From an uncultured Clostridia bacterium (GTDB lineage: Bacteria; Bacillota; Clostridia; Peptostreptococcales; Anaerovoracaceae), in assembly GCA_934247125.1 (NCBI GenBank), contig CAKQIZ010000008.1:1-35981 (forward strand): 35,981 nucleotides of DNA, read 5' to 3'. The position numbers were made by a program, and so were the translations under genes. Below are positions 2,259-31,325 of this stretch, in pieces. The notes beneath the pieces are model-generated. The model searched no databases. It saw only the letters and a list, made by a program, of their open reading frames with translations, and was not told where the DNA came from. Position 1 is the first letter of the stretch. Every line of letters begins with the position of its first letter.

Positions 2259-3005
2259 TCAGTAATAAAACCCTGTTCCCGGATCTGAATACTCGGCTAC
2301 TCTCGCCTCATAGGCATCCATCGCAGCCTCTTCAAAAGCCAGCTTTGGATCTGCTGCACCGCACTGCCTGAGCACATATTTTGCGAAAGGCGGGTTGAGC
2401 ACCATCAGAGGTCCTATGATGTACGTAGCCATGAAATTATTGACATGTATACCTTCACCGATCATATCCGGATTCAGTCCCGGCCCTCTGTCCGTAATGA
2501 AAAGCGGATCAGCCTTGACGCCGCCTTCCTCCCAGTACGAATGAGTGAACTGGCTCTTATAGCCGACTATTTTCATCATCGCGGCCACATCGCCTGTCTC
2601 CCCCTTGAACTCGCCGAGGTACAGCGAATTGTACCTGTCCATCATATCTCTCTTAGTCACAAAGTCGAAGAAACCCATACATTCAACGACTGTGCCGTCT
2701 ACATCCTCGATCCTCTTTCCAAAGACCTCAAGCGCATTTCCGGTGATCAGGAAATTCACGCCGCGCCCTATGAGCTCTTCGATACGTTCTATATACGCAG
2801 ACAGCTTGTCTATCACGAGAAGCTGTGCACTTTCCGTCATCGTACCCATATATATGAGGTCCGGCTCTTCGGTCACAAACAGCGGTTCGTCCGTGACAGC
2901 CGTCTCCACGACTTCGATATCCGGCATCGATTTTTTAAGATATCCTATATTCTCAAGTTCACCGTACAGATTGCATATTTCCGGGAAAAGGACTTCTATT
3001 TTCAT
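2259..3005 (-). CDS. gatD: GatD-like class I glutaminase-fold protein, copy 1, catalytic residues missing
   Basis: 248 aa. Genuine GatD is the glutaminase subunit that feeds ammonia to MurT for amidation of lipid II D-glutamate. The overall GatD pattern is recognisable: N-terminal LFPEICNLYGE, a central FLITGNALEVFG segment and C-terminal NNFMATYIIGP. From memory of the Staphylococcus aureus protein, the catalytic Cys sits in an ICGGYQ segment and the His in TYLHGP. Here those positions appear to be Thr88 and Ile197. The protein is therefore unlikely to hydrolyse glutamine and may be a structural partner of the MurT-like ligase. Its ATG overlaps the MurT-like stop in an ATGA, which implies translational coupling. 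A second copy with the same losses lies at 5788-6486. Fold assignment is good. Function is inferred. Confidence 0.75.
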   Translation of the reverse strand: MKIEVLFPEICNLYGELENIGYLKKSMPDIEVVETAVTDEPLFVTEEPDLIYMGTMTESAQLLVIDKLSAYIERIEELIGRGVNFLITGNALEVFGKRIEDVDGTVVECMGFFDFVTKRDMMDRYNSLYLGEFKGETGDVAAMMKIVGYKSQFTHSYWEEGGVKADPLFITDRGPGLNPDMIGEGIHVNNFMATYIIGPLMVLNPPFAKYVLRQCGAADPKLAFEEAAMDAYEARVAEYSDPGTGFYY

Positions 3006-4384
3006 TTGCTTTTTCCTCCTTTTTCCTCTATGGTCTTCTTCACTTTAGCTGCCACCTTCGATCCCAGTGCGATCGAATCCGTTCCGTAAAGAACATATAT
3101 ATAGCTCTCGCCGTTCAGCTTCAGCTTGTCCGGAGTGTCCAGCTCGTCATCAGTATACGAGATCTTTTCCTCCGGAACGCCTGCGAGGAGCAGTCTCAGT
3201 CTGTAGTCCTTCACTCTCGGTCCGCAGATGATGATGTTTTTGATATTCTCATCGTTCAGGAACTCAAAATCGCAGTCGTACATCCAGCAGGTGTTTTCCG
3301 ACCAGTGTATCGCGTCTCCCTGACAGCAGTTCATCAGTATGATCTCTTTCTTTCCTTTCGTATGCGAAATGTAGTCGAACACTCTCGAACTTGCAAACGC
3401 GTTTTTCTCTTTTGCGAGCATCCTGCATATCGTGTATTCGCCGACCTTTACTTCATCGTAACGGCTTCCCACTATGCTCATATTTTCGAGAAAAGACTGC
3501 ACCTTTTCACGCGAGTAGCCCATTTCAAGGAAAAGTGCTACCATCGATACGACGTTGTATATGTTATATGCGCTGTCGTTGAGCAGTCTGTACGTTGCTC
3601 TGCCGTTCCTGTCTCTGATATCGAGCGTCATTTTTTCCAGATCTGCATTGCAGCCTGCATAGTCGTATTCAGGAGCTGCAAAGCCGCACTCAGGGCAGTA
3701 TGCCTTGCCGATATGGCTGTATCTGAGGTATTCGTACTTGAGCTTATGATGACATTCAGGGCAGATCTGTATATCGTTTATCAGATTTATGCACTCCGTT
3801 ATATCGCCCGGCATTTTTTCTATACCGAAATACGCTCTGTAATTGTCAGGGGCAACGCCTGAACAGAGCAGATCATCTGCATTCAGTATCAGTTTCGTCT
3901 TCTTCGGCATGTATTCCGTCAGTATATCCGAAATGTATTCCGGATGTCCGTTTCTCATTATCGAATCTCTCGACAGGTTCGTGACGATCATGTATTCAGG
4001 CTCCATGTACGGGAATATCCTTCTCGCTGAACGTTCGTCGATCTCAAAGAGGCCTAGATCCTTTTTGCATTTTCCCGACAGTCCGCAGTTCTGTATGAGG
4101 CTTGTAGCTATACCGCTGTTGATATTCGAACCCATCCTGTTGTTTACTGCCGATTTTCCCTCCTGAGTGAAAGCATCGACGATCATATTGCTGACAGTCG
4201 TCTTGCCGTTCGTTCCTGTAACTGCTATCACCTTTTCAGGCTTTCCTATATATTTCATGAAATCCGGGCATATCCTGAGCGCCAGCACACCGGGGAAATT
4301 AGTACCGTTATGCCGCGTGATCTTCAATGCCACGATCGAAAGCTTGGCCGCCCATAACGCAGCCAGAAATCTTAGTTTTCCCAT
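3002..4384 (-). CDS. murT: MurT-like Mur ligase, copy 1
   Basis: About 460 aa. MurT is a Mur-ligase-fold enzyme that uses ATP to activate the D-isoglutamate carboxylate of lipid II for amidation, together with GatD at the membrane. Visible here are the P-loop VTGTNGKTTVSN near residue 60, the four-Cys zinc ribbon (CPECHHKLKY then YCPECG) inside the central domain, and the C-terminal MurT domain (CWMYDCDFEFLND). The LND-ADGRD-SW segment, thought to donate the third triad residue (Asp), reads MNCCQGDAIHW, so that Asp is lost. The ATG at 4384 is preferred over 4399 because AAAGGA precedes it by six bases. The leader contains the 52-bp repeat array. The gene is coupled to gatD-like 1 by a four-base overlap. 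Confidence 0.82.
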   Translation of the reverse strand: MGKLRFLAALWAAKLSIVALKITRHNGTNFPGVLALRICPDFMKYIGKPEKVIAVTGTNGKTTVSNMIVDAFTQEGKSAVNNRMGSNINSGIATSLIQNCGLSGKCKKDLGLFEIDERSARRIFPYMEPEYMIVTNLSRDSIMRNGHPEYISDILTEYMPKKTKLILNADDLLCSGVAPDNYRAYFGIEKMPGDITECINLINDIQICPECHHKLKYEYLRYSHIGKAYCPECGFAAPEYDYAGCNADLEKMTLDIRDRNGRATYRLLNDSAYNIYNVVSMVALFLEMGYSREKVQSFLENMSIVGSRYDEVKVGEYTICRMLAKEKNAFASSRVFDYISHTKGKKEIILMNCCQGDAIHWSENTCWMYDCDFEFLNDENIKNIIICGPRVKDYRLRLLLAGVPEEKISYTDDELDTPDKLKLNGESYIYVLYGTDSIALGSKVAAKVKKTIEEKGGKSK

Positions 4385-4393
4385 AAAGAATCC

Positions 4394-4535
4394 TTTCATA
4401 TATTTGTCAGCTGAAAGCTGACATTAAGGTTATCCCCGCAGGGGGTTTCATATATTTGTCGACTTTATGTCGACATTAAGGTTACACCCTTGTGGTGTTT
4501 CATTTATTTGTCAGCTGAAAGCTGACATCAACGTC
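4394..4535. repeat. 52-bp tandem repeat with two covarying hairpins, 2.7 units
   Basis: Units start at 4394, 4446 and 4498, an exact 52-bp period; the third is partial. Each begins TTTCATwTATTTG followed by hairpin 1: TGTCAGC/GCTGACA in units 1 and 3, TGTCGAC/GTCGACA in unit 2. Hairpin 2 follows ATTAAGGTTA: CCCC-GCA-GGGG in unit 1, ACACC-CTTGT-GGTGT in unit 2. Both arms change together while the spacers are kept, so base pairing is under selection. The array lies between murT-like 1 (-) and the ATP-grasp gene (+), within the predicted murT leader RNA. A related element occurs at 19371-19420. Confidence 0.85.
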
Positions 4536-4555
4536 ACTACATCTGCAACCCGGAT

Positions 4556-4563
4556 ATTATACC
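4556..4563 (-). promoter_or_regulatory. Possible extended -10 promoter for murT-like 1
   Basis: On the minus strand TGGTATAAT forms an extended -10 element (TATAAT at 4561-4556). No good -35 box is visible. Transcription from here would give a leader of about 165 nt carrying the whole 52-bp repeat array. Confidence 0.4.
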
Positions 4564-4656
4564 ATGTTTCACCTTTTTATGCCATATCAAACCGGTCCGC
4601 TGCATTTAGTATTTACCGGAACGCTTCCCTGAATTTGTTCAAAACACTCAAATGCT

Positions 4657-4684
4657 TTGTTTTTTCTGTAGATTATGGTAATAT
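4657..4684 (+). promoter_or_regulatory. Possible promoter of the ATP-grasp gene
   Basis: TTGTTT (4657-4662), a 16-bp spacer and TAATAT (4679-4684), about 40 bases before the proposed ATG at 4725. Confidence 0.4.
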
Positions 4685-4724
4685 TATAGGTAATTCAAAA
4701 AAGGAAGGCAGTGTTAAATACAAT

Positions 4725-5714
4725 ATGAAAAAGCTCAGATTTCTTATCGGCCGTATATTCGGCATGAATTATAAGCAGCTGTTCGATACAGTAAAAAAAG
4801 TCCATAAGGTATCAGGGAAAAACAGTGTGGCACTTTTCTTCGATATCATATACTGCGGTCTGAAATATCAGGCAGGCTATGTCGATTACCTCAACGCGAG
4901 GATGGATACGCTGAATGCGGAAGAACGCCGCGATGTCGTGACAAGAGGCGTGAACAACCAGTACGTCGTAAAGTACAATGACTTCGACTACGTCCACTAT
5001 TTCATAAACAAGGTGGATTTCAATGAAAAATTCAGCAAATACCTCGGCCGTGACTGGCTGTTCGTGAAAAGCGCAGATCAGCGCGACGAATTTGCAGAAT
5101 TCATAAAGGACAAAGAAGATTTTATCCTAAAGCCTGTCGACGGCACTCACGGCGACGGAGTTGCGAAACTCCCCGCATCGATGGGATCATTCGATGCGAG
5201 CCTTGACAAAATGCCGTACCTCGCAGAAGAACGGATCATACAGGTGAAAGAAATGTCCGCACTCAATCCGAGCAGTGTCAACACCATCAGAGCTGTCACG
5301 TTCCTCAAAGACGGCAAGGCGACTCTGCTTGCGGCATATCTGCGAATAGGAAGAGACGGCATCGTCGACAACTTCTGCAACGGCGGCATGCTGACGCCGG
5401 TCGACCTTGAAACAGGCTCGCTCATGTACCCTGCAGTCGACGGCGAGAATATCGCATACGACATACACCCGATCACACACACATCGATAATCGGATTCAA
5501 GGTGCCTCAGTGGGAAAAGATAAAAGAAATGGCTCTTGAAGCTGCACACGTCGTTCCTCAGGTGCGCTATGTCGGGTGGGATATAGCAGTTTCAGAAAAC
5601 GGACCGTGCCTGATCGAGGGCAATGAATATCCGGGTCACGTATTCTATGTGTTCGCAGAGCATCATCCTGACCACAAGGGCTGCAGACATATATTCGAGT
5701 CTGTCATGGATTAA
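4725..5714 (+). CDS. Sugar-transfer-associated ATP-grasp family protein
   Basis: 329 aa. It carries ATP-grasp hallmarks: FILKPVDGTHGDGV (nucleotide-binding Lys and a Gly-rich loop, about residues 133-146), NPSSVNTIRAVTFL, and the metal-binding end CLIEGNEYPGH. The pattern matches the 'sugar-transfer associated ATP-grasp' group, whose members sit in polysaccharide and envelope clusters and presumably ligate a carboxylate to an amine or alcohol. The substrate is unknown. The ATG at 4725 is favoured because homology begins just after it. A GGAAGG lies 15 bases upstream, which is rather far, so the start is not certain. It stands alone on the plus strand between two MurT/GatD-like pairs and ends in a bidirectional terminator. 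The placement hints at an envelope role shared with its neighbours. Confidence 0.75.
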   Translation: MKKLRFLIGRIFGMNYKQLFDTVKKVHKVSGKNSVALFFDIIYCGLKYQAGYVDYLNARMDTLNAEERRDVVTRGVNNQYVVKYNDFDYVHYFINKVDFNEKFSKYLGRDWLFVKSADQRDEFAEFIKDKEDFILKPVDGTHGDGVAKLPASMGSFDASLDKMPYLAEERIIQVKEMSALNPSSVNTIRAVTFLKDGKATLLAAYLRIGRDGIVDNFCNGGMLTPVDLETGSLMYPAVDGENIAYDIHPITHTSIIGFKVPQWEKIKEMALEAAHVVPQVRYVGWDIAVSENGPCLIEGNEYPGHVFYVFAEHHPDHKGCRHIFESVMD

Positions 5715-5741
5715 ATGCACATCGAACGAAAAAGATATTAT

Positions 5742-5779
5742 AAAAGCTGCCGAGCATCAAGCATAACGGCAGCTTTTTC
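5742..5779. terminator. Bidirectional terminator between ATP-grasp gene and gatD-like 2
   Basis: AAAAGCTGCCG (5742-5752) pairs with CGGCAGCTTTT (5767-5777). The stem is flanked by A-rich sequence on one side and a T-run on the other, and serves the two convergent genes. Confidence 0.85.
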
Positions 5780-5787
5780 ATTTTACA

Positions 5788-6486
5788 TCATTCCATAGTC
5801 CTGTTCAGCTCTGCGAGTCTGTACTCATAAGCTTCGACTATCTCCTTTTCGAAGCACAGCGTATCATCGATGCCCATGATCCTCATGAGCTTCTTCGCAA
5901 ACAGCGGGTTGAGTATCAGGAAAGGTCCCAGTGAATAGGTCCCGAAGAAATTGTTTCTGCGAACACCTTCTTTTTTCGTATCAGGATTCATCCCGATGCC
6001 TTTCTGTATATCTATGAAGTTCTCATCAAAATCTCCATAAGCGAACGAGAACTGACTCCTGTGGCCCAGCACTGTGATATCATCAAATGTACCTATGAAC
6101 TGGGAATTGTGCCGATCTCTGCTCATATACCTCACCGAGTGGAAATCGAATATGCCGAGAGCGTCTATCTTCCTGCCGGCGTCTTCGATATAATTGCCGA
6201 ACATCTCGACTGCATTGCCCGTCGCCAGGAATATCACACCTTTGTCGATCAGTTCAATGATCCTGTCGCGATACCGGCTCAGTATCCCTATGATCTGCTC
6301 CTGCTTCCTCTCCGTCGTGCATCCAAGATATATCATATCGACATCTTCGTTTACGAAAGCCGGAGTATCCATGTGGTTTGTGTTTATGACTTCTATCTCG
6401 TCACTGCACCGCTTCAGATATTCCACATTGTAGCTTTCCCCGTAAATATTACAGAGTTCCGGAAAGAGTAATTCTACCTTTTTCAT
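5788..6486 (-). CDS. gatD: GatD-like class I glutaminase-fold protein, copy 2, catalytic residues missing
   Basis: 232 aa, clearly paralogous to the copy at 2259-3005. Shared blocks are LFPELCNIYGES, FLATGNAVEMFG, LGIFDFHS, GHRSQFS, NNFFGTYSLGP and LILNPLFAKK. As in copy 1, the position of the GatD nucleophile Cys is Thr89 and that of the catalytic His is Leu186. The TGNA motif is the same in both copies, so the change is a conserved feature of this subfamily and not random decay. It probably forms a complex with the MurT-like protein whose gene overlaps it by four bases (ATGA). Glutamine hydrolysis is unlikely. Free ammonia or another amine donor, or a purely structural role, are the alternatives. 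Confidence 0.75.
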   Translation of the reverse strand: MKKVELLFPELCNIYGESYNVEYLKRCSDEIEVINTNHMDTPAFVNEDVDMIYLGCTTERKQEQIIGILSRYRDRIIELIDKGVIFLATGNAVEMFGNYIEDAGRKIDALGIFDFHSVRYMSRDRHNSQFIGTFDDITVLGHRSQFSFAYGDFDENFIDIQKGIGMNPDTKKEGVRRNNFFGTYSLGPFLILNPLFAKKLMRIMGIDDTLCFEKEIVEAYEYRLAELNRTME

Positions 6487-7865
6487 TTTGCCGCCTCCTC
6501 CTTTGCTCTCTCAACGATCCTGTCTCTCATGTTTCTCGCCTTAGTCACATAGTCTATCTCGAACAGCACGTACACTTTTTCTATGCCGCTTCTGTCAACG
6601 TGATCCACTATATCAGCCTCATCCTCGACGCACACGATCCTGCTCTCATCTATGCCGGCAAGCAGCAGTCTCAGCTTGTGATTGAGATACATATGACCGC
6701 CGACTATGATCTTTCTGATATTAGGGCTGTTCAGGAATTCATAGTCCGTTTCGTACAGCCACGTAACCGTCTCCGACGGGTGGTTCCTGTCCTGCACCTC
6801 GTCGAGCAGCAGCACTACTTCTTTTACCGACGGCTCTTTCGCCATATATTCGAACACCGTCGACGCCGCACTGACATTCTGGCTCTTTGCCGCATATGTC
6901 AGATATTCTATACCGTTGAATTCCACACTCGTTTCTCTTATCTTTGTCACGCGCTGAGTCTTCAGGAAATCAGCAAGATCCTGCTTTGCAAATCCCAGCT
7001 CTCTCATAAGCGCGATATATGACAGCACGTTGAACGCATTGAACACGGTATCGGATATGAGCGGATATGCGGTAGTCTCACCTTCCTCCCGCACTGTCAT
7101 TTCCTTAGTGTCATAATCGACAGCCTCAGCAAAGTATTTTGCATCAGGTGTCCTGAAATCACATGAGTCACAGTAAAAATCACCGATATGTCTGTAAAGT
7201 CTGTAATGATAATGTATATCATGTCCACATTCAGGACAAACCGATATATCTTTTACAGTATTCTCAAACGGATCCGCTCCGATATCTGCCATGCCGTAAA
7301 ACACTCGTCTGGCGCCTGAATGTGCAGCCAGCTGTGAGCTTATCGGGTCGTTCGCGTTCAGGATCGCTACAGTCTTGTCTCCGAGAACATTGAATGTCCT
7401 CTCCACGTGATCGAAGATGAATTCGGGATGTCCGTTTCTCCTAAGCGAATCCTTGCATATATTCGTCACCAGGATATAATGCGGCTCTATCAGAGTCATA
7501 GTGTCGTCGAGAGTTTTTTCGTCGGCCTCGAGCACTGCCGCATCCATCTTGACAGGTCTGTTGAGAAAATCCACACATCTCATCAGATTGAGACCGTACC
7601 CTGCCTGCAGGTTCGCGCCCCAGTCATTGAAGCTGACTCTGTACCCGTCTGCAACGAGCTTGTTGTTGATCAGTGCTGACGTCGTCGTCTTGCCGTTCGT
7701 TCCTGTTATCGCGATCACAAGCTTAGGCTTGTTTATATATTTCAGGAACTGCGGACAGATCTTGTATGCCAGAAGACCCGGCCAGTCGTCACGTTCGTTT
7801 CCTCTCTTTTTGAAAATAAACGCTACTATTTTTGAGATCCATAAGGCGATATAAAATCTAAACAT
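6483..7865 (-). CDS. murT: MurT-like Mur ligase, copy 2
   Basis: About 460 aa. It has the Mur ligase P-loop ITGTNGKTTTSALIN near residue 60, a four-Cys zinc ribbon (CPECGHDIHY then YCDSCDF) and the C-terminal MurT domain (TWLYETDYEFLN, then GHMYLNHKLRLLLAG). The LND-type motif of MurT reads LLDEVQDRNHPSETVTW, so the expected Asp is Glu or shifted. Start is the ATG at 7865, preceded by GGAGG with a seven-base spacer; the upstream in-frame ATG at 7892 lacks a site. It is diverged from copy 1 throughout, so the duplication is old. It may act on a different peptidoglycan precursor or another Glu/Asp-containing substrate. The ATP-binding half looks functional. Confidence 0.82.
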   Translation of the reverse strand: MFRFYIALWISKIVAFIFKKRGNERDDWPGLLAYKICPQFLKYINKPKLVIAITGTNGKTTTSALINNKLVADGYRVSFNDWGANLQAGYGLNLMRCVDFLNRPVKMDAAVLEADEKTLDDTMTLIEPHYILVTNICKDSLRRNGHPEFIFDHVERTFNVLGDKTVAILNANDPISSQLAAHSGARRVFYGMADIGADPFENTVKDISVCPECGHDIHYHYRLYRHIGDFYCDSCDFRTPDAKYFAEAVDYDTKEMTVREEGETTAYPLISDTVFNAFNVLSYIALMRELGFAKQDLADFLKTQRVTKIRETSVEFNGIEYLTYAAKSQNVSAASTVFEYMAKEPSVKEVVLLLDEVQDRNHPSETVTWLYETDYEFLNSPNIRKIIVGGHMYLNHKLRLLLAGIDESRIVCVEDEADIVDHVDRSGIEKVYVLFEIDYVTKARNMRDRIVERAKEEAAK

Positions 7866-7944
7866 ATATTGTCCTCCGTATGTCGTATTCATCGCAAATA
7901 AGCTTTTTTATTGTACCACGTTTGATCAGATAATTCCACACCCT

Positions 7945-10801: not shown

Positions 10802-11989
10802 TCAGAAATAAGTGCTCCTGACCTGCTTGCCCATATCTTCAAGCCGGTCTTTCAGATCATTGATTATTTTCATTTTCGTCGCGAACGATATCGATTTTTC
10901 AGTTCCCTGGTGAGCCGGATTGACAGCGCTCCCCACGAAAATATTGATATCCGTCGCCTCTTCAAACAGCATGCGCGCCATCAGCGAAGCGCTGTCTCTG
11001 CTGTAGCACCACTGCACATACGTCCTGTTGTCCTCCAGGTAATCCTCCGCGTATTCCAGCACTCTGCTCAGAGTCAGCACACCTTCAGTCGTCAGATCCA
11101 CGCCTTCGATCTTGCCCATTGCCGGAATATCAGGATCATTCTGTATGTAAGGATCATCGACTATCTTTTTTCCCAAATAGTCCGCCGCTATCTTTGCCGT
11201 AGTTCCCCCGCAGACCACATGCCTGCCCTTTTTGGAAAAGAACAGCGACATCATCTTGTGCGTGTCTGCGATATTTGCAGGCGGTCCTACCAGTACATTC
11301 ACCTGCTCCCGTTCTTTTATGCAAAGCGTCAGCGCTGTCGTATCGTCTCCCGGTTCTGCCACATAACGTTTGAAGCACTCGTCGAGAAGGATCGTGTTGA
11401 TCGTCTTCGCAGAAAATCCCACCACGCTGACCGGCTCCATATAGTCGACGATCGCAGCGCGGCCCCATTTGTTCTCGTAACTGGCTCCGCCGAAAGCCAC
11501 ACCTGCGTTTTCCACACCATCGCTGATCGCGATCACGACATCATCTTTCTGAAGCTGTATCTTCGCCGACTCTATCGTCTTATCGTCTATCACAGTCGAA
11601 GAAAACGGTATCTCGACCTCGGTACCGTCTCTGAGCAGTATCGTCGACGGATTATCATACTGGAATATACTAAGCATGCCTGATGTAGATATGTGCAGCA
11701 CCGTAAATGTCGAGTATGCCAGATGTCTGACGGAACACACAGGAAGTGCCTCAGCCACAGCATTCACGCAGTTTGCGATCGGCAGATTTTCCGCTATCAT
11801 CCTCGAGATTATCGTTGCTGTCAGCGTCGACAGTATGCAGGCCTTCACTCCGCTGCCGAGCCCGTCGGCAAGTACTGCCACGATCGACCCGTCCTCGCAC
11901 TGCACCTTTTCCACATGGTCGCCGCATATCATCTGGCCGTCTTTAGTCAGGCTCGCGTATCCTATATCTGCATAAATCGTCTCAATCAT
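10802..11989 (-). CDS. SpoIIE-type (PP2C-fold) serine phosphatase
   Basis: About 395 aa. PP2C/SpoIIE metal-binding signatures are visible: VLADGLGSGVKA (about residues 40-51), VVIAISDGVENAG (near 150), and EPGDDTTALTLCI (near 215), each with the Asp residues that bind Mn/Mg. The C-terminal half, beginning near VNVLVGPPANI, resembles no domain I can name. Such phosphatases dephosphorylate anti-sigma antagonists or other Ser/Thr-phosphorylated regulators. The ATG at 11989 overlaps the stop of the upstream hydrogenase-like sensor gene by eight bases and has AAGGAG within that gene's end, so the two are translationally coupled. This pairing is known around sensory (group C, HydS-like) [FeFe] hydrogenases, and the phosphatase is the likely output of the redox or H2 sensor. 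Confidence 0.85.
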   Translation of the reverse strand: MIETIYADIGYASLTKDGQMICGDHVEKVQCEDGSIVAVLADGLGSGVKACILSTLTATIISRMIAENLPIANCVNAVAEALPVCSVRHLAYSTFTVLHISTSGMLSIFQYDNPSTILLRDGTEVEIPFSSTVIDDKTIESAKIQLQKDDVVIAISDGVENAGVAFGGASYENKWGRAAIVDYMEPVSVVGFSAKTINTILLDECFKRYVAEPGDDTTALTLCIKEREQVNVLVGPPANIADTHKMMSLFFSKKGRHVVCGGTTAKIAADYLGKKIVDDPYIQNDPDIPAMGKIEGVDLTTEGVLTLSRVLEYAEDYLEDNRTYVQWCYSRDSASLMARMLFEEATDINIFVGSAVNPAHQGTEKSISFATKMKIINDLKDRLEDMGKQVRSTYF

Positions 11990-13649
11990 CGGCAATCGTC
12001 TCCTTCAGGTGCTCCAGTGCGATAAGCGTGTCGGCAGTAGTCTCTCCCAGCAGCGATGCGATGCTCTGGACGATCTTTAGCTGCTTTTTCGCCATATCGT
12101 TTGCGATCTCGAACGCCTGGTTCTGATTCGCAAGCTTTTTCTCTTTAAGTGCCATGTCCGCAGTTATATCGCACAAAATGCAGATGAACTGATGGCCCTC
12201 ACGATTGTATATTATCGTCTGCTCCACATAACATTCGTACTCAGCGAGATACATCTGCTCATACATTAGATTTTTCTTTTTGAGCATCACCATTTCAAAA
12301 GGCTCCGGATCGAGCAGTCTGCCGATATGTTCACCCATAACATCATTTTCATCACGGATGCGCAGGATCTTCTTCGCCTTCGGATTTATCTTCTGGATCT
12401 CCAGTTCGTCATTGAGCACCAGTACAGCATCAGGGAAATTAGCTACTACAGAGTCGGACAGATTTTCCATCTGGTTCAGCATGTAAGGCAGACACATCGA
12501 TATCTCGGCTTTTCCCTGGATTATCGCAATGGCCTTTTCTCTGCACGTGCAGTATCCGCATGAACCGCAGTTGAGCTCGTCTTCCTTTGACAGCTTGTTC
12601 ATCTTTAAAAGCATTGCTTTTATTTCCGCCTCTGACGGCTGCTCAGCTTCAAGCTCGGAAGGCTCATAAACAGCCGCGATCTCTTCCTTTGCATACTTTT
12701 CTACTGCAAAATCCTCTTTTTCAGCATAATGCACGACCTGCAGGTAATTCTGTGCAGGCGTGTTCTTCATCTTGTCCAGGATCGGCCCGTCAGCACAGCT
12801 TCCCTCGCATGCGGACATTTCTATAAAGCAGTTGTGCAGTCTCCCCTCCTTTATTTCGTCGAGAACATCCATGCACTTTTTCACGCCGTCAACAGCGACA
12901 TACGTGTATTCCGGGTTTTTATCCATCGTCTCGATGATACCTCCTGCAGTCGGGAACACTCTCGCCCGGCCGCCTTTTCTGATATCCTCGCGTCTGCTGA
13001 GTTCTATGCCTTCTTCCCTGAGCCATCTGTTGAACTCGTCGAACATCAGGACCGCATCCACCGCATCTTCTTCTGCCGCCTCTGATTTCTTGGAAATGCA
13101 CGGCCCTATGAAAACGGTCTTCGCTTCAGGATGTCTGCGTTTTATATCTCTGCAGTGCGCCTGCATCGGCGTGATCACCGGCGCAAGTGTGAACAGTGTC
13201 TCCGGATAATATTTTCTCAGCATCAGATTTATGCTGGAGCAGCACGAAGACACCAGGATATTAGGCTTTTCCTCATCCAGTATCCTCTCATATTCTTTTT
13301 TCACTATGGTCGCGCCTACCGCAGTCTCTTCCGCTCCCGCAAATCCCAGCTTTTTCAGCGCCTCTTCCAGTGCATCTATGCCGACTCCGGGATAGCTGGC
13401 TGCAAAAGACGGAGCGATGCTCGCATAAACGGTGCCCGTCTGCAGCATGATCCTGACTTTTTCCATATCGCTTGCGATGACTTTCGCATCCTGCGGACAG
13501 ACGGCAAAGCAGCGCCCGCACAGTATACATTCATCTTCCACTATATGCGCCTGCCCCGCTGTGAATCTTATGGACTTCACAGCACAGTTTCTGATACATT
13601 TATGGCAGCTCTTGCAGTTTGTCTTTTTCAATCCGAGTATTTCTCTCAT
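11982..13649 (-). CDS. [FeFe]-hydrogenase-like sensor with ferredoxin, FeS and PAS domains (HydS type)
   Basis: 555 aa. Domain order: two [4Fe-4S] motifs (CKSCHKCIRNC at 12-22, CILCGRCFAVCP at 41-52); an H-cluster-type catalytic domain with SSCCSS (134-139), IGPCISKK (181-188) and ACEGSC (280-285); a further FeS motif CGSCGYCTC (361-369) with Cys386; a PAS-like domain at about 395-500; and a helical C-terminus. All Cys positions for an H-cluster appear kept. The loops differ from catalytic enzymes: SCCSS instead of SCCPxW, and EGSC-ADGP instead of GGC-xxGGGQP. That is typical of the sensory group. It probably senses H2 or redox state and signals through the coupled SpoIIE-type phosphatase. 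The ATG at 13649 has GAGGAG five bases upstream. Confidence 0.85.
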   Translation of the reverse strand: MREILGLKKTNCKSCHKCIRNCAVKSIRFTAGQAHIVEDECILCGRCFAVCPQDAKVIASDMEKVRIMLQTGTVYASIAPSFAASYPGVGIDALEEALKKLGFAGAEETAVGATIVKKEYERILDEEKPNILVSSCCSSINLMLRKYYPETLFTLAPVITPMQAHCRDIKRRHPEAKTVFIGPCISKKSEAAEEDAVDAVLMFDEFNRWLREEGIELSRREDIRKGGRARVFPTAGGIIETMDKNPEYTYVAVDGVKKCMDVLDEIKEGRLHNCFIEMSACEGSCADGPILDKMKNTPAQNYLQVVHYAEKEDFAVEKYAKEEIAAVYEPSELEAEQPSEAEIKAMLLKMNKLSKEDELNCGSCGYCTCREKAIAIIQGKAEISMCLPYMLNQMENLSDSVVANFPDAVLVLNDELEIQKINPKAKKILRIRDENDVMGEHIGRLLDPEPFEMVMLKKKNLMYEQMYLAEYECYVEQTIIYNREGHQFICILCDITADMALKEKKLANQNQAFEIANDMAKKQLKIVQSIASLLGETTADTLIALEHLKETIADD

Positions 13650-16656: not shown

Positions 16657-17646
16657 TCACTTATTCTGCCATCGGACTTCCCCGTCCGTTATTATCGGGT
16701 ATCGGATAAGCCGATCTGAATCCAGATCCTCCGCATGCATATCCACTGCCGTTACCTGCTGATTATCGTATGTCGTATAGTAATAGATCCCTTTATCAGC
16801 GTTACAGCACGACGTATATATGGTTATCTCATATTTGCCGTCGCCCACCTCGCAGCATCCGCGCTGCTGGTCGACTGAACCCAGGATATGAAAAAACTGA
16901 CTCACACTTTCTTTTTCGCTGTATCCTGATACCGAACTCAGCTTAGTGAATGCCGCCTTTACGAATCTCGACTGACTCGAAAGATCTCCCGGTATCCCCA
17001 TCGCACCCATTCCTCTGCTGTATGCATCGAGCTTCAGTGTTCCTGCAAAGGTATTTTCCGGCTGTTTTCGAGAAATGCCTGCATAGTTGTTCAGTGCAAA
17101 AAGCTGCACAGGAAATGGCGGGTTGTTCGTGAGCACTCCGACGGGGTCATCATACACATTCAGTCCATCCTCCGTGGATTCCACCACGATGCATTCATCC
17201 TTATCGGCTATCATCCAGTGCAGCTGCGCCGGAGGAAACTGATCGCTGAACGGTGTGCCTGTAAGTCTCATTCCGGCAATCCTTACTCTTGCCTCCATGA
17301 CCGATCCGCACTGGCCAAGTATCCACGGAATAAACTTAAACTGCGCCACCTGGACATCATCGGTCTCGCCGACAGGAACAGCATCTTCATATGCCGCATT
17401 GCCGACAAAATTGAGCCCTGCCATTCCCAGGCCCTTTTCATTCACTCCATCGTAATAAAGAGGATATCCGCTCGCAACGAATGCCATCCCGATGATCGCA
17501 TAGTGCGACTCCAGCTTTCCTGCATGCCTGAAGTCGAATTCGTAGTTTCTCGGCGTCACGGTCACCTCTTCACCGTAAGAGAACTCGTAGTCCAGAGTCC
17601 TCCCTATATAAAAATCTTTTGTTTTGTAAGTTGATGCTGTGCACAT
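16657..17646 (-). CDS. bsh: Bile salt hydrolase (choloylglycine hydrolase family)
   Basis: 329 aa. An N-terminal-nucleophile amidase that removes glycine or taurine from conjugated bile acids. The initiator Met is directly followed by the nucleophile (MCT). The active-site residues of the family are visible: GRTLDYE (Arg and Asp), GLNFVGNAAY (Asn near 82), VLTNNPPFPVQLFALNNY (Asn near 172) and PGDLSSQSRFVKAAF (Arg near 225). TNNP with SSxSRFV is closer to bile salt hydrolases than to penicillin V acylases. There is no signal peptide, as expected for an intracellular enzyme. It converges on xdhC with only 30 bp between stops. An AGAGAGA ribosome binding site precedes the ATG. Substrate class is well supported, but the preference between glyco- and tauro-conjugates is not. 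Confidence 0.9.
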   Translation of the reverse strand: MCTASTYKTKDFYIGRTLDYEFSYGEEVTVTPRNYEFDFRHAGKLESHYAIIGMAFVASGYPLYYDGVNEKGLGMAGLNFVGNAAYEDAVPVGETDDVQVAQFKFIPWILGQCGSVMEARVRIAGMRLTGTPFSDQFPPAQLHWMIADKDECIVVESTEDGLNVYDDPVGVLTNNPPFPVQLFALNNYAGISRKQPENTFAGTLKLDAYSRGMGAMGIPGDLSSQSRFVKAAFTKLSSVSGYSEKESVSQFFHILGSVDQQRGCCEVGDGKYEITIYTSCCNADKGIYYYTTYDNQQVTAVDMHAEDLDSDRLIRYPIITDGEVRWQNK

Positions 17647-17774: not shown

Positions 17775-18276
17775 TCATGCCCTTACATATCTCTGATTTC
17801 TGCTATTCGGCTTATCCGGTATCGTCATCCTGATCAGATCCATCTCAATCGCCGGGCGAAGATAGTTTCTTCGGAATCCCTCTTTCGCTTTTAATCCCAG
17901 CATCTCTACCAAAGCATTGCTCGTGTAAGGAACGTCATACCCCATAACTTCAAGCAGCTTTCTCACAGTCTCCGGAAGATATTCATTTTTCTCACTGATC
18001 TGAGCAAGGATATCTTCCAGAATTCTATCGATCTGAGACAGCATAAATTCGATAAAAGCAGTGGATTCTCCATCAGCATGGCACCGAGAGACAGATTCAT
18101 AATATTCATCCTGAAATTTCTCGATCTGACTTTCAACAGAGATATATTCAACGACCGGCTTCCATTTAAACAGAATAGCCGTATGCCACAATCTCGCCAT
18201 CCTGCCATTACCCTCAGAAAAAGGATGGATGAATACAAATTCATAGTGAAATGCACTGCTCAGAATCATCGGTACA
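17775..18276 (-). pseudogene. Truncated Fic-family AMP-transferase (N-terminus lost)
   Basis: About 164 aa from the first ATG. The remnant starts just before the catalytic motif HPFSEGNGR (the family HPFx(D/E)GNGR loop with its His is intact) and runs through the conserved helix RLWHTAILFKW to a C-terminal winged-helix-like part. Intact Fic proteins of this kind have roughly 150 or more residues before this motif, including the flap and often the inhibitory helix. Here reading backwards hits a stop within 12 codons of the ATG, and the DNA turns into a MATE transporter fragment on the other strand. The gene has therefore been cut by recombination. The remaining product is probably unstable or inactive. 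Confidence 0.8.
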
Positions 18277-30290: not shown

Positions 30291-31325
30291 TTATGCACGT
30301 TCCATTGCCTCGACGTAATCTCTGGTATCTGTAAAGATTTCATTCTTCCAAGGATTCTTGTTCTGAGACTTCGCTCTCCTGAGAATATATGCAAACGCGA
30401 ACACATTTACAGCTATCGACAGAACTGCGATAAGGCCCTGTGCCAGCGGATCTGCTGCAGCAGGCATACTTTCACCCATTGCTGCAGCGATGCCGCCCTC
30501 ACCGTATACAGATGTAACAGTCGTGAATCTGCTTGCATCCTGGAAGAGCGGAAATACCTGAGCAAACATGCACCACAGTGCCAGAGTATTAGCACGATTC
30601 TGGATCCATCCACCCTTGTTCCACAGTGCCGCGGCAAAAGTCGGAGCGAGCAGAAGTGCAAGACCACAGTACCATGAATGTGTCGGCAGATTGAGATATG
30701 TGTACTCAAAATTCCATATATCATATGCCAGTATAAAAACCCAGATCATATCAGGCCAGAGCATATCCTGCCTGTTCTTTGATGAGTATATCCCCCACCA
30801 GCCTGTCATACAGAATATGTTGAACAGCCCGGCGATCCCGTTAAGGACATTCCACCATCCGCCATAAAGCCATACACCCTCTGATGACAGCCACCATCCG
30901 CCTGCAAGTGAACCGGCACGGATCGCTGACTCAAAGTCAGAGGCAACAGCGATCAGAATATTGATAGCTACGATCACAAAAGGGAATGCTTTGAAAGCAT
31001 GTGATTTACCGAGCTTTCCCCAGTGATACTTGAGGATCATGAAGCCTATGCAGCCTGCAGTTGCAGCGTACAGCTTCGCATAATGGAACCAGCTGTTCAT
31101 ATGTACATAGGTATCGTTATCAAGTGCCCATTCAGCACCTTTGGCAGCGCCGATATAAATAGCGATGAAGTACACTGTCAGAGCAGCAGGCAGTGCCACA
31201 AAACACGCAATTCCGCCTGCCTTTGAGCGTCTTGCGATCTCATTCATTACAACAAGACCGACAAATACCATCAGCCAGCCCAGAAGCTGCCATCCGGCTG
31301 TCTCTCCATAAATATCAAAAAACAT
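30291..31325 (-). CDS. DUF5692-like integral membrane protein
   Basis: 344 aa with about nine to ten hydrophobic segments. Aromatic-rich conserved stretches such as WWNVLNGIAGLFNIFCMTGW, DMLWPDMIWVFILAYDIWNF and HSWYCGLALLLAPTFAA match what I recall of the uncharacterised DUF5692 family, found mostly in gut anaerobes. No catalytic motif is evident, and function is unknown. It follows hypA by about 11 bp in the same direction and ends the operon at a strong terminator. Its link to nickel-insertion genes hints at a transporter for nickel or a related solute, but that rests on position only. Confidence 0.75.
   Translation of the reverse strand: MFFDIYGETAGWQLLGWLMVFVGLVVMNEIARRSKAGGIACFVALPAALTVYFIAIYIGAAKGAEWALDNDTYVHMNSWFHYAKLYAATAGCIGFMILKYHWGKLGKSHAFKAFPFVIVAINILIAVASDFESAIRAGSLAGGWWLSSEGVWLYGGWWNVLNGIAGLFNIFCMTGWWGIYSSKNRQDMLWPDMIWVFILAYDIWNFEYTYLNLPTHSWYCGLALLLAPTFAAALWNKGGWIQNRANTLALWCMFAQVFPLFQDASRFTTVTSVYGEGGIAAAMGESMPAAADPLAQGLIAVLSIAVNVFAFAYILRRAKSQNKNPWKNEIFTDTRDYVEAMERA

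What the first reader, a model, noticed from the sequence alone, without database searches (positions are those of the whole stretch)
2259..7865. Two MurT/GatD-like pairs that have lost the whole glutaminase triad
Both GatD-like proteins have Thr where the nucleophile Cys should be (same TGNA motif) and Ile or Leu where the His should be. Both MurT-like partners lack the expected Asp. ATP sites, zinc ribbons and the four-base gene overlaps are kept. Two diverged pairs with the same change imply a conserved complex that does not take ammonia from glutamine. This may be a new Mur-ligase-type modification of cell wall or another carboxylate substrate.
Basis: partly seen in the sequence, partly recalled or inferred. 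Interest (0 to 1): 0.75.

Follow-up and report, generated by a model that had tools for sequence, protein, structure and literature searches.

The report
Cell-wall ligase pairs with dead glutaminase
A Clostridia-like bacterium carries two copies of a cell-wall-modifying enzyme pair that can no longer split glutamine and whose ligase half has been rebuilt, part of a large family that probably attaches something other than glutamine-derived ammonia.

Summary
In detail: both pairs are MurT/GatD homologues with four-base overlaps; both GatDs lack the nucleophile Cys and the His, both MurTs the partner Asp; ATP site and zinc ribbon are intact. One detail is off: Gly, not Thr, of TGNA takes the Cys place. 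The change is old and widespread. All 360 listed homologues read TGN, none has Cys. At least 31 of 80 MurT-bearing class-level genomes examined carry such pairs, and in 20 carrier genomes all 25 MurT hits are of this type. The MurT half is also rebuilt: Arg beside the magnesium acids, ammonia-loop RDQLDRYGE to RDSxMRNGH, Asp mostly to Asn. Two other lineages (six sequences) that lost the Cys separately keep the canonical MurT residues, so rebuilding is not a by-product of losing glutaminase. Best reading: a MurT-type ligase with a pseudo-glutaminase subunit that takes its amine directly, more likely an amino acid than ammonia, onto a peptidoglycan precursor. Free-ammonia amidation stays a serious rival: S. 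aureus GatD-C94G does that in vitro at pH 8.5. No substrate is known. New variant of a known kind.

The parts
2259..3005 (-). GatD-1, pseudo-glutaminase subunit (248 aa)
   Evidence: AF2 model pLDDT 91.3, best PDB match S. aureus GatD 5n9m, E 9.8e-20
2733..2744 (-). TGNA in place of ICGG; Gly89 at the nucleophile position
2409..2426 (-). TYIIGP; Ile197 in place of catalytic His
3002..4399 (-). MurT-1, Mur-type ligase subunit (465 aa)
   Evidence: AF2 model pLDDT 88.7, best PDB match S. aureus MurT 6h5e, E 5.6e-28
3284..3307 (-). HWSENTCW; Asn369 in place of MurT Asp349
3944..3970 (-). RDSIMRNGH, rebuilt form of the ammonia-channel loop RDQLDRYGE (S. pneumoniae MurT 135-143)
   Evidence: loop role from PMC6085368
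4031..4045 (-). EIDER; Arg123 next to the Mg-binding Asp-Glu pair, Ala in canonical MurT
4196..4216 (-). P-loop GTNGKTT of MurT-1 (kept)
3686..3763 (-). zinc ribbon of MurT-1, C213, C216, C235, C238 (kept)
4725..5714 (+). PF14397 ATP-grasp protein (329 aa; longest ORF starts at 4467), between the two pairs; a homologue lies directly upstream of MurT in 22 of 80 related loci and downstream of GatD in 2 more
5788..6486 (-). GatD-2, pseudo-glutaminase subunit (232 aa)
6211..6222 (-). TGNA of GatD-2
5923..5940 (-). TYSLGP; Leu186 in place of catalytic His
6483..7865 (-). MurT-2, Mur-type ligase subunit (ORF to 7892; ATG at 7865 has GGAGG upstream)
6759..6782 (-). HPSETVTW; Thr375 in place of MurT Asp349
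7428..7454 (-). KDSLRRNGH, rebuilt loop of MurT-2
7515..7529 (-). EADEK; Lys126 at the Arg123 place
7161..7238 (-). zinc ribbon of MurT-2, C219, C222, C241, C244 (kept)

Best explanation
Two paralogous members of a large, widespread clade of remodelled MurT/GatD complexes in Clostridia. Shown by sequence and model: the GatD-like subunit keeps the GatD fold but has no glutaminase residues; the MurT-like subunit keeps the Mur-ligase ATP, magnesium and acyl-phosphate residues; its ammonia-loop and the site next to the magnesium acids are rebuilt with new conserved residues (Arg123, Asn150, His152). Inferred: MurT activates a carboxylate on a peptidoglycan precursor with ATP, and the acyl phosphate is attacked by an amine taken directly from solution or from the old GatD pocket, more likely an amino acid (or a similar amine with an acidic group, which Arg123 and His152 could hold) than ammonia. 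GatD serves as an obligatory structural and perhaps ligand-holding subunit. The neighbouring ATP-grasp protein may carry out a further step on the same precursor.
For: No Cys in 360 and no His in 358 readable listed homologues. MurT tree: 110 remodelled-side against 46 others, split support 0.999. Residues at MurT-1 positions in the main clade of 101 against 34 live: 123 Arg in 96 against Ala in 33; 148 Asp in 0 against 34; 152 His in 100 against Glu in 32; 369 Asn in 77 (Asp still in 8) against Asp in 33. Control: six sequences from two other lineages that lost the Cys, plus four MurTs with no GatD paired by the script, keep Ala or Gly at 123 (10 of 10), Gln146 (10 of 10), Asp148 (10 of 10) and Asp369 (9 of 10, one gap), so losing glutaminase alone does not bring the rebuilding. 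Mur-ligase core kept: Lys66, Asp121, Glu122, Asn141, Asn282, Lys330 and the zinc Cys in 100-101 of 101. Loop residues whose loss lowered S. pneumoniae activity (Asp136, Arg140; PMC6085368) are kept (Asp145, Arg149, 101 of 101). GatD Arg124, at the place of S. aureus R128 that sequesters glutamine (PMC5871853), is kept in 104 of 105 TGN-type and 34 of 34 live GatDs. Interface: MurT Trp360 and GatD Gly34 of S. pneumoniae, in direct contact (PMC6085368), become Tyr in 89 of 101 MurTs and a variable GatD residue. Peptidoglycan link: murC (497 bits for one representative) on the same strand within 10 kb in 10 of 80 loci, 0.5-0.6 kb downstream in 8; the ATP-grasp gene next to the pair in 24 of 80. 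All 25 MurT_C hits in 20 carrier genomes are of the dead type.
Against: No substrate or product is known. S. aureus GatD-C94G with MurT still amidates lipid II from free ammonia at pH 8.5 (PMC3266927), so loss of Cys is compatible with the old product. In S. pneumoniae, alanine at the loop residues Asp139 and Glu143 had only minor effects (PMC6085368), so the loop changes need not alter chemistry. Asp is still present at 369 in 8 of 101. Tyr at 374 also occurs in 5 of the 10 control sequences, so that change is not special to the clade. Outlying members differ: the TGT/IGA group lacks the loop His, and the two INN sequences lack Arg123, one of them keeping Asp148. MurE in 11 of 18 carrier genomes read has the DAP-type SDNPR motif, so nothing points to one unusual wall type. 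70 of 80 loci have no murC in the fetched stretch. No cultured carrier with a known wall structure was found.
Confidence: 0.45

Rival explanations
1. Free-ammonia amidation. The pair makes the same product as canonical MurT/GatD (isoglutamine at position 2), but from ammonium in the cytoplasm; GatD is kept only as a structural partner.
For: S. aureus MurT with GatD-C94G keeps ammonia-dependent amidation at pH 8.5 and still needs GatD (PMC3266927). Glycine is what nature put there. Mur-ligase core and pairing are kept. The two lineages with a separate Cys loss and an unchanged MurT look like exactly this.
Against: In the main clade acidic residues around the ammonia path are lost or replaced (148 Asp in 0 of 101; 152 Glu to His in 100; 369 Asp in only 8) and a conserved Arg appears by the magnesium site, whereas the separate-loss lineages keep them. 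C94G, like the wild type, does not use ammonia at pH 7.5 (PMC3266927).
Confidence: 0.3
2. Different acceptor outside peptidoglycan: the pair modifies another carboxylate, for example of a teichoic-acid-like polymer, a cofactor or a small peptide.
For: The DNAAD motif thought to touch the stem peptide (PMC6113224) is replaced (Asp366 to Trp in 56 of 101). The linked ATP-grasp is of the sugar-transfer-associated family PF14397. The window neighbours read as central metabolism genes.
Against: murC near the pair in 10 of 80 loci. The 20 carrier genomes examined hold no other MurT, so the clade appears to stand in for the wall enzyme.
Confidence: 0.15
3. Regulatory or vestigial complex without ligase activity.
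For: Glutaminase residues are gone.
Against: ATP, magnesium and acyl-phosphate residues of MurT are kept in 99-101 of 101 members, which a dead ligase would not keep.
Confidence: 0.06
4. Misalignment: the nucleophile and base sit elsewhere in the pocket and the pair is an ordinary glutaminase.
For: Conserved polar residues (Asn90, Glu93, Arg119, Ser151) have appeared.
Against: No Cys is among the invariant or nearly invariant columns of the 30-member alignment A1. The model places Gly89 at the elbow.
Confidence: 0.03

Closest known systems
MurT/GatD lipid II isoglutaminyl synthase (S. aureus 6gs2/6h5e, S. pneumoniae 6fqb, S. pyogenes 9sq9)
   Same: Fold of both subunits, gene pair with overlap, zinc ribbon, P-loop and Mg acids
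   Different: No catalytic Cys, His or (in most members) MurT Asp; MurT loop and Mg-site neighbour rebuilt; far below the NCBIfam equivalog cut-offs
S. aureus MurT with GatD-C94G (laboratory mutant, PMC3266927)
   Same: Gly at the nucleophile position; the GatD partner is still needed for activity in the mutant and its gene is still paired here
   Different: The mutant keeps His, MurT Asp349 and the canonical MurT loop; the natural clade does not
Pseudomurein peptide ligase pMurC (6vr7) and archaeal MurT-like without GatD (PMC11915815)
   Same: MurT-related Mur ligases that work or occur without a glutaminase (pMurC model 69.8 and 82.8 bits; 6vr7 structural match)
   Different: No GatD partner; archaeal wall
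Amino-acid-adding Mur ligases MurC-MurF
   Same: ATP and acyl-phosphate core; a His in the active-site loop, which canonical MurT lacks (PMC6085368), is present in 100 of 101 of the clade although at another loop position
   Different: No UDP-binding N-terminal domain found, zinc ribbon present, GatD-like partner gene

Membership tests
MurT/GatD lipid II isoglutaminyl synthase | GatD nucleophile Cys (C94) | tested here: not met
   Gly in both
MurT/GatD lipid II isoglutaminyl synthase | GatD catalytic His (H189) | tested here: not met
   Ile and Leu
MurT/GatD lipid II isoglutaminyl synthase | MurT Asp349 completing the triad | tested here: not met
   Asn and Thr in the window pairs
MurT/GatD lipid II isoglutaminyl synthase | NCBIfam equivalog score (400-450 for GatD, 800 for MurT) | tested here: not met
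   39-60 bits for GatD and 120-173 bits for MurT
MurT/GatD lipid II isoglutaminyl synthase | Mur ligase P-loop, Mg Asp-Glu pair, zinc ribbon, MurT_C domain | tested here: met
MurT/GatD lipid II isoglutaminyl synthase | adjacent co-directional gene pair | tested here: met
   four-base overlaps
MurT/GatD lipid II isoglutaminyl synthase | glutamine-dependent amidation of lipid II | not testable with these tools
   needs purified proteins
GATase_3 / class I glutaminase fold | overall fold | tested here: met
   GatD-1 model: Foldseek E 9.8e-20, TM 0.81 to 5n9m. GatD-2 was not modelled
Amino-acid-adding Mur ligase | amino-acid substrate | not testable with these tools
   inference only from rebuilt residues
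Amino-acid-adding Mur ligase | UDP-binding N-terminal domain | tested here: not met
   Pfam shows no such domain, only Mur_ligase_M and MurT_C over cut-off

The most novel reading that the evidence does not exclude
The clade is an amino-acid ligase that attaches an amino acid to the alpha-carboxyl of D-Glu at position 2 of the wall precursor, with the dead glutaminase turned into the subunit that presents that amino acid. It would then be a candidate for the ligase behind position-2 (type B) cross-links, and the two pairs plus the ATP-grasp protein would add successive residues. The link to type B walls, and that their ligase is unknown, is recalled knowledge and was not tested here.
Probability: 0.2. 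Interest if true: 0.85.

Novelty: new variant of a known kind. Interest (0 to 1): 0.62.

Why it matters
A glutaminase subunit kept across many species without its chemistry, beside a ligase whose active site was rebuilt, points to an undescribed wall modification in Clostridia, many of them gut organisms by the titles of their records. Abstracts seen in the listings tie position-2 amidation to methicillin susceptibility, cross-linking and masking from NOD-1 in other bacteria (PMC6113224, PMC10484409, PMC11132681), so what these organisms put there is a worthwhile and testable question. The two lineages with a separate Cys loss and an unchanged MurT offer a natural comparison group for free-ammonia amidation.

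Tried and rejected
Paper searches for wall types (listings only) gave nothing usable.

MurE motif as a marker of wall type: 10 of 10 genomes with live MurT read SDNPR; of 20 carrier genomes 18 were read, 11 SDNPR, 1 DENPR, 6 other. Several carriers have extra MurE-like paralogues, many with [DEQ]DPG. Suggestive only: genomes are related and the sample is small.

Thr as a replacement nucleophile: rejected, since Thr88 aligns with Ile93 and is the last residue of the strand before the elbow.

Neighbourhoods of 19 divergent clade members showed no shared wall gene that I could recognise. ORF clusters 2-5 I take for antisense shadows of MurT and GatD.

Not found in print: searches listed no paper that I could see to be about MurT/GatD homologues without the catalytic Cys; these were listings with starts of abstracts. 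I saw passages of PMC6113224, PMC6085368, PMC5871853, PMC3266927, PMC12786226 and PMC11915815, and in full only sections 11 and 13 of PMC6085368 and section 11 of PMC6113224. PMC10484409 and PMC11132681: starts of abstracts only.
Full report
WHAT IS THERE. The window holds two minus-strand gene pairs, GatD-1 (2259-3005) with MurT-1 (3002-4399), and GatD-2 (5788-6486) with MurT-2 (6483-7892, probably from 7865), each overlapping by four bases, and between them a plus-strand ATP-grasp gene (likely 4725-5714). Pfam and solved-structure searches place the proteins with MurT and GatD: S. aureus MurT E 4e-43 and 8.9e-40, S. aureus GatD E 5.1e-11 and 4.8e-12. NCBIfam equivalog models are hit far below cut-off. 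The two pairs are paralogues, 45% identical in GatD and 34% in MurT.

THE LOST RESIDUES. Aligned without gaps around the elbow, S. aureus I-C94-G-G faces T-G-N-A, so the nucleophile is replaced by Gly and the preceding Ile by Thr. The AlphaFold2 model of GatD-1 (pLDDT 91.3, pTM 0.90) ends a strand at residue 88 and starts a helix at 89, the usual place of the nucleophile; its nine best structural matches are GatD chains. The His is Ile or Leu, and MurT Asp349 is Asn or Thr. Published work makes this decisive for glutamine use: C94G and C94S abolish, and MurT D349N abolishes or severely reduces, glutamine-dependent amidation in S. aureus (PMC3266927 and PMC6113224, passages). The acid of the triad as shown for S. 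pneumoniae (GatD Asp32, PMC6085368) matches a residue that stays acidic here (Asp or Glu in 101 of 105).

HOW WIDE. Three homology searches gave 305, 891 and 1663 hits; the best 120 of each were listed. All 360 listed proteins read TGN at the elbow and none has Cys; the His place is readable in 358 and none has His. The lower hits were not seen. A scan of species genomes confirmed 206 places, of which the best 80 were returned; most titles say Clostridia, Clostridiales, Lachnospiraceae, Oscillospiraceae, Firmicutes or Bacillota, and a few say Erysipelotrichaceae, Tenericutes or Bacteroides. In an even draw of 291 genomes of the class of Sporobacter termitidis, 158 have a MurT_C domain. I examined the locus in 80 of these 158: the 30 best-scoring, 36 of the weakest, 12 more, and G001 and G005. 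At least 31 belong to the remodelled side (22 TGN, 9 TGT, INN or IGA). The 78 not examined score 107-132 bits for MurT_C, above the remodelled ones scored (at most 93.4). In 20 genomes picked from the carriers, all 25 MurT_C hits are of the dead type, so the glutamine-dependent enzyme was not found there. The window's own genome is not held. Four of those 20 genomes hold both pair types, as the window does; in two of them (loci L016, L038) the pairs sit side by side with the ATP-grasp gene.

REBUILT LIGASE. I aligned 146 distinct MurTs: 107 with a dead GatD, 34 live, 1 mixed, 4 with no GatD paired by the script. The Mur-ligase core is kept in all groups. In the main clade of 101 the residue after the magnesium-binding Asp-Glu is Arg in 96 (live: Ala in 33 of 34); the loop that borders the ammonia path in S. 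pneumoniae (135-143, PMC6085368) changes from RDQLDRYGE to RD[SQ]xxRN[GA]H, with Asp148 kept in 0 of 101 and His152 present in 100; Asp369 (S. aureus D349) is Asn in 77 and still Asp in 8; Trp374 is Tyr in 89. The last change goes with loss of the conserved Gly on GatD that this Trp touches in S. pneumoniae, which suggests that the two subunits still meet and have changed together, but Tyr at 374 also occurs in 5 of the 10 comparison sequences below, so it is not special to the clade.

THE COMPARISON GROUP. In the MurT tree (156 sequences) 110 MurTs on the remodelled side are separated with support 0.999 from 46 others: 35 live, 2 mixed, 3 without GatD and 6 with a dead GatD. Those six come from two separate lineages (L140 alone, and a group of five). 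The six, together with four MurTs left unpaired (L139, L156 and L171 with no GatD beside them; L167 whose MurT reads in two frames and whose GatD also lacks Cys), keep the canonical residues at 123, 146 and 148 (10 of 10 each) and Asp369 (9 of 10, the tenth a gap). Losing glutaminase therefore does not by itself bring the rebuilding. This is my main reason to favour a changed amine donor over free ammonia in the main clade. The groups are small and related, so this is an argument, not a proof. On the remodelled side the outlying TGT and IGA sequences have Arg123 but no loop His, and the two INN sequences lack Arg123, one keeping Asp148.

CONTEXT. A PF14397 ATP-grasp gene is directly upstream of MurT in 22 of 80 loci and downstream of GatD in 2 (two representatives checked). 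Of 75 loci with a full MurT, 67 have at least 1.4 kb upstream. murC follows on the same strand in 10 of 80 loci, in eight of them 0.5-0.6 kb from GatD, with prs and pth behind it in most (one representative each checked). These loci are related, so they are not independent events, and 70 of 80 loci show no murC in the fetched stretch.

MECHANISM. Shown: sequence loss, conserved core, rebuilt site, conserved gene pairing. Inferred: MurT activates a carboxylate on a wall precursor and the amine comes directly. Arg123 beside the magnesium site and His152 in the loop could hold an acidic group of an incoming amino acid; GatD Arg124, the counterpart of S. aureus R128 that holds glutamine at the surface (PMC5871853), is kept in 104 of 105. 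The strongest counter-evidence is that S. aureus MurT/GatD-C94G still amidates lipid II from ammonia at pH 8.5 (PMC3266927) and that alanine at Asp139 or Glu143 of S. pneumoniae MurT had minor effects (PMC6085368).

RELATION TO THE KNOWN. By fold and gene order this is a sister group of MurT/GatD; by tested features it is not a lipid II isoglutaminyl synthase, since Cys, His and Asp are not met. The archaeal MurT-like proteins without GatD (PMC11915815, passages) and pMurC are relatives that occur without a glutaminase. My paper searches listed no description of such a clade.

Noticed in passing
   Followed up: partly
L139, L156, L171: MurT genes with canonical residues but no GatD found beside them.
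   Followed up: partly
L136, L137, L138, L141, L142 (one group) and L140: Two separate losses of the GatD Cys with an unchanged MurT: candidates for free-ammonia amidation.
   Followed up: yes
L202-L214: Extra MurE-like paralogues, many with a [DEQ]DPG motif, in several genomes that carry the remodelled MurT/GatD.
   Followed up: partly
window 16657-17646 (-): Choloylglycine hydrolase family protein (PF02275, 331.6 bits).
   Followed up: no
window 17775-18269 (-): Only the C-terminal part of a Fic-family protein is encoded (Fic profile 64-93 of 93 plus Fic-like_C); looks truncated.
   Followed up: no
window 10802-13649 (-): Iron-hydrogenase-like protein with a PAS domain beside a SpoIIE-type phosphatase, perhaps a signalling pair.
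   Followed up: no
window 30291-31325 (-): Protein of unknown family DUF5692 (456.5 bits).
   Followed up: no
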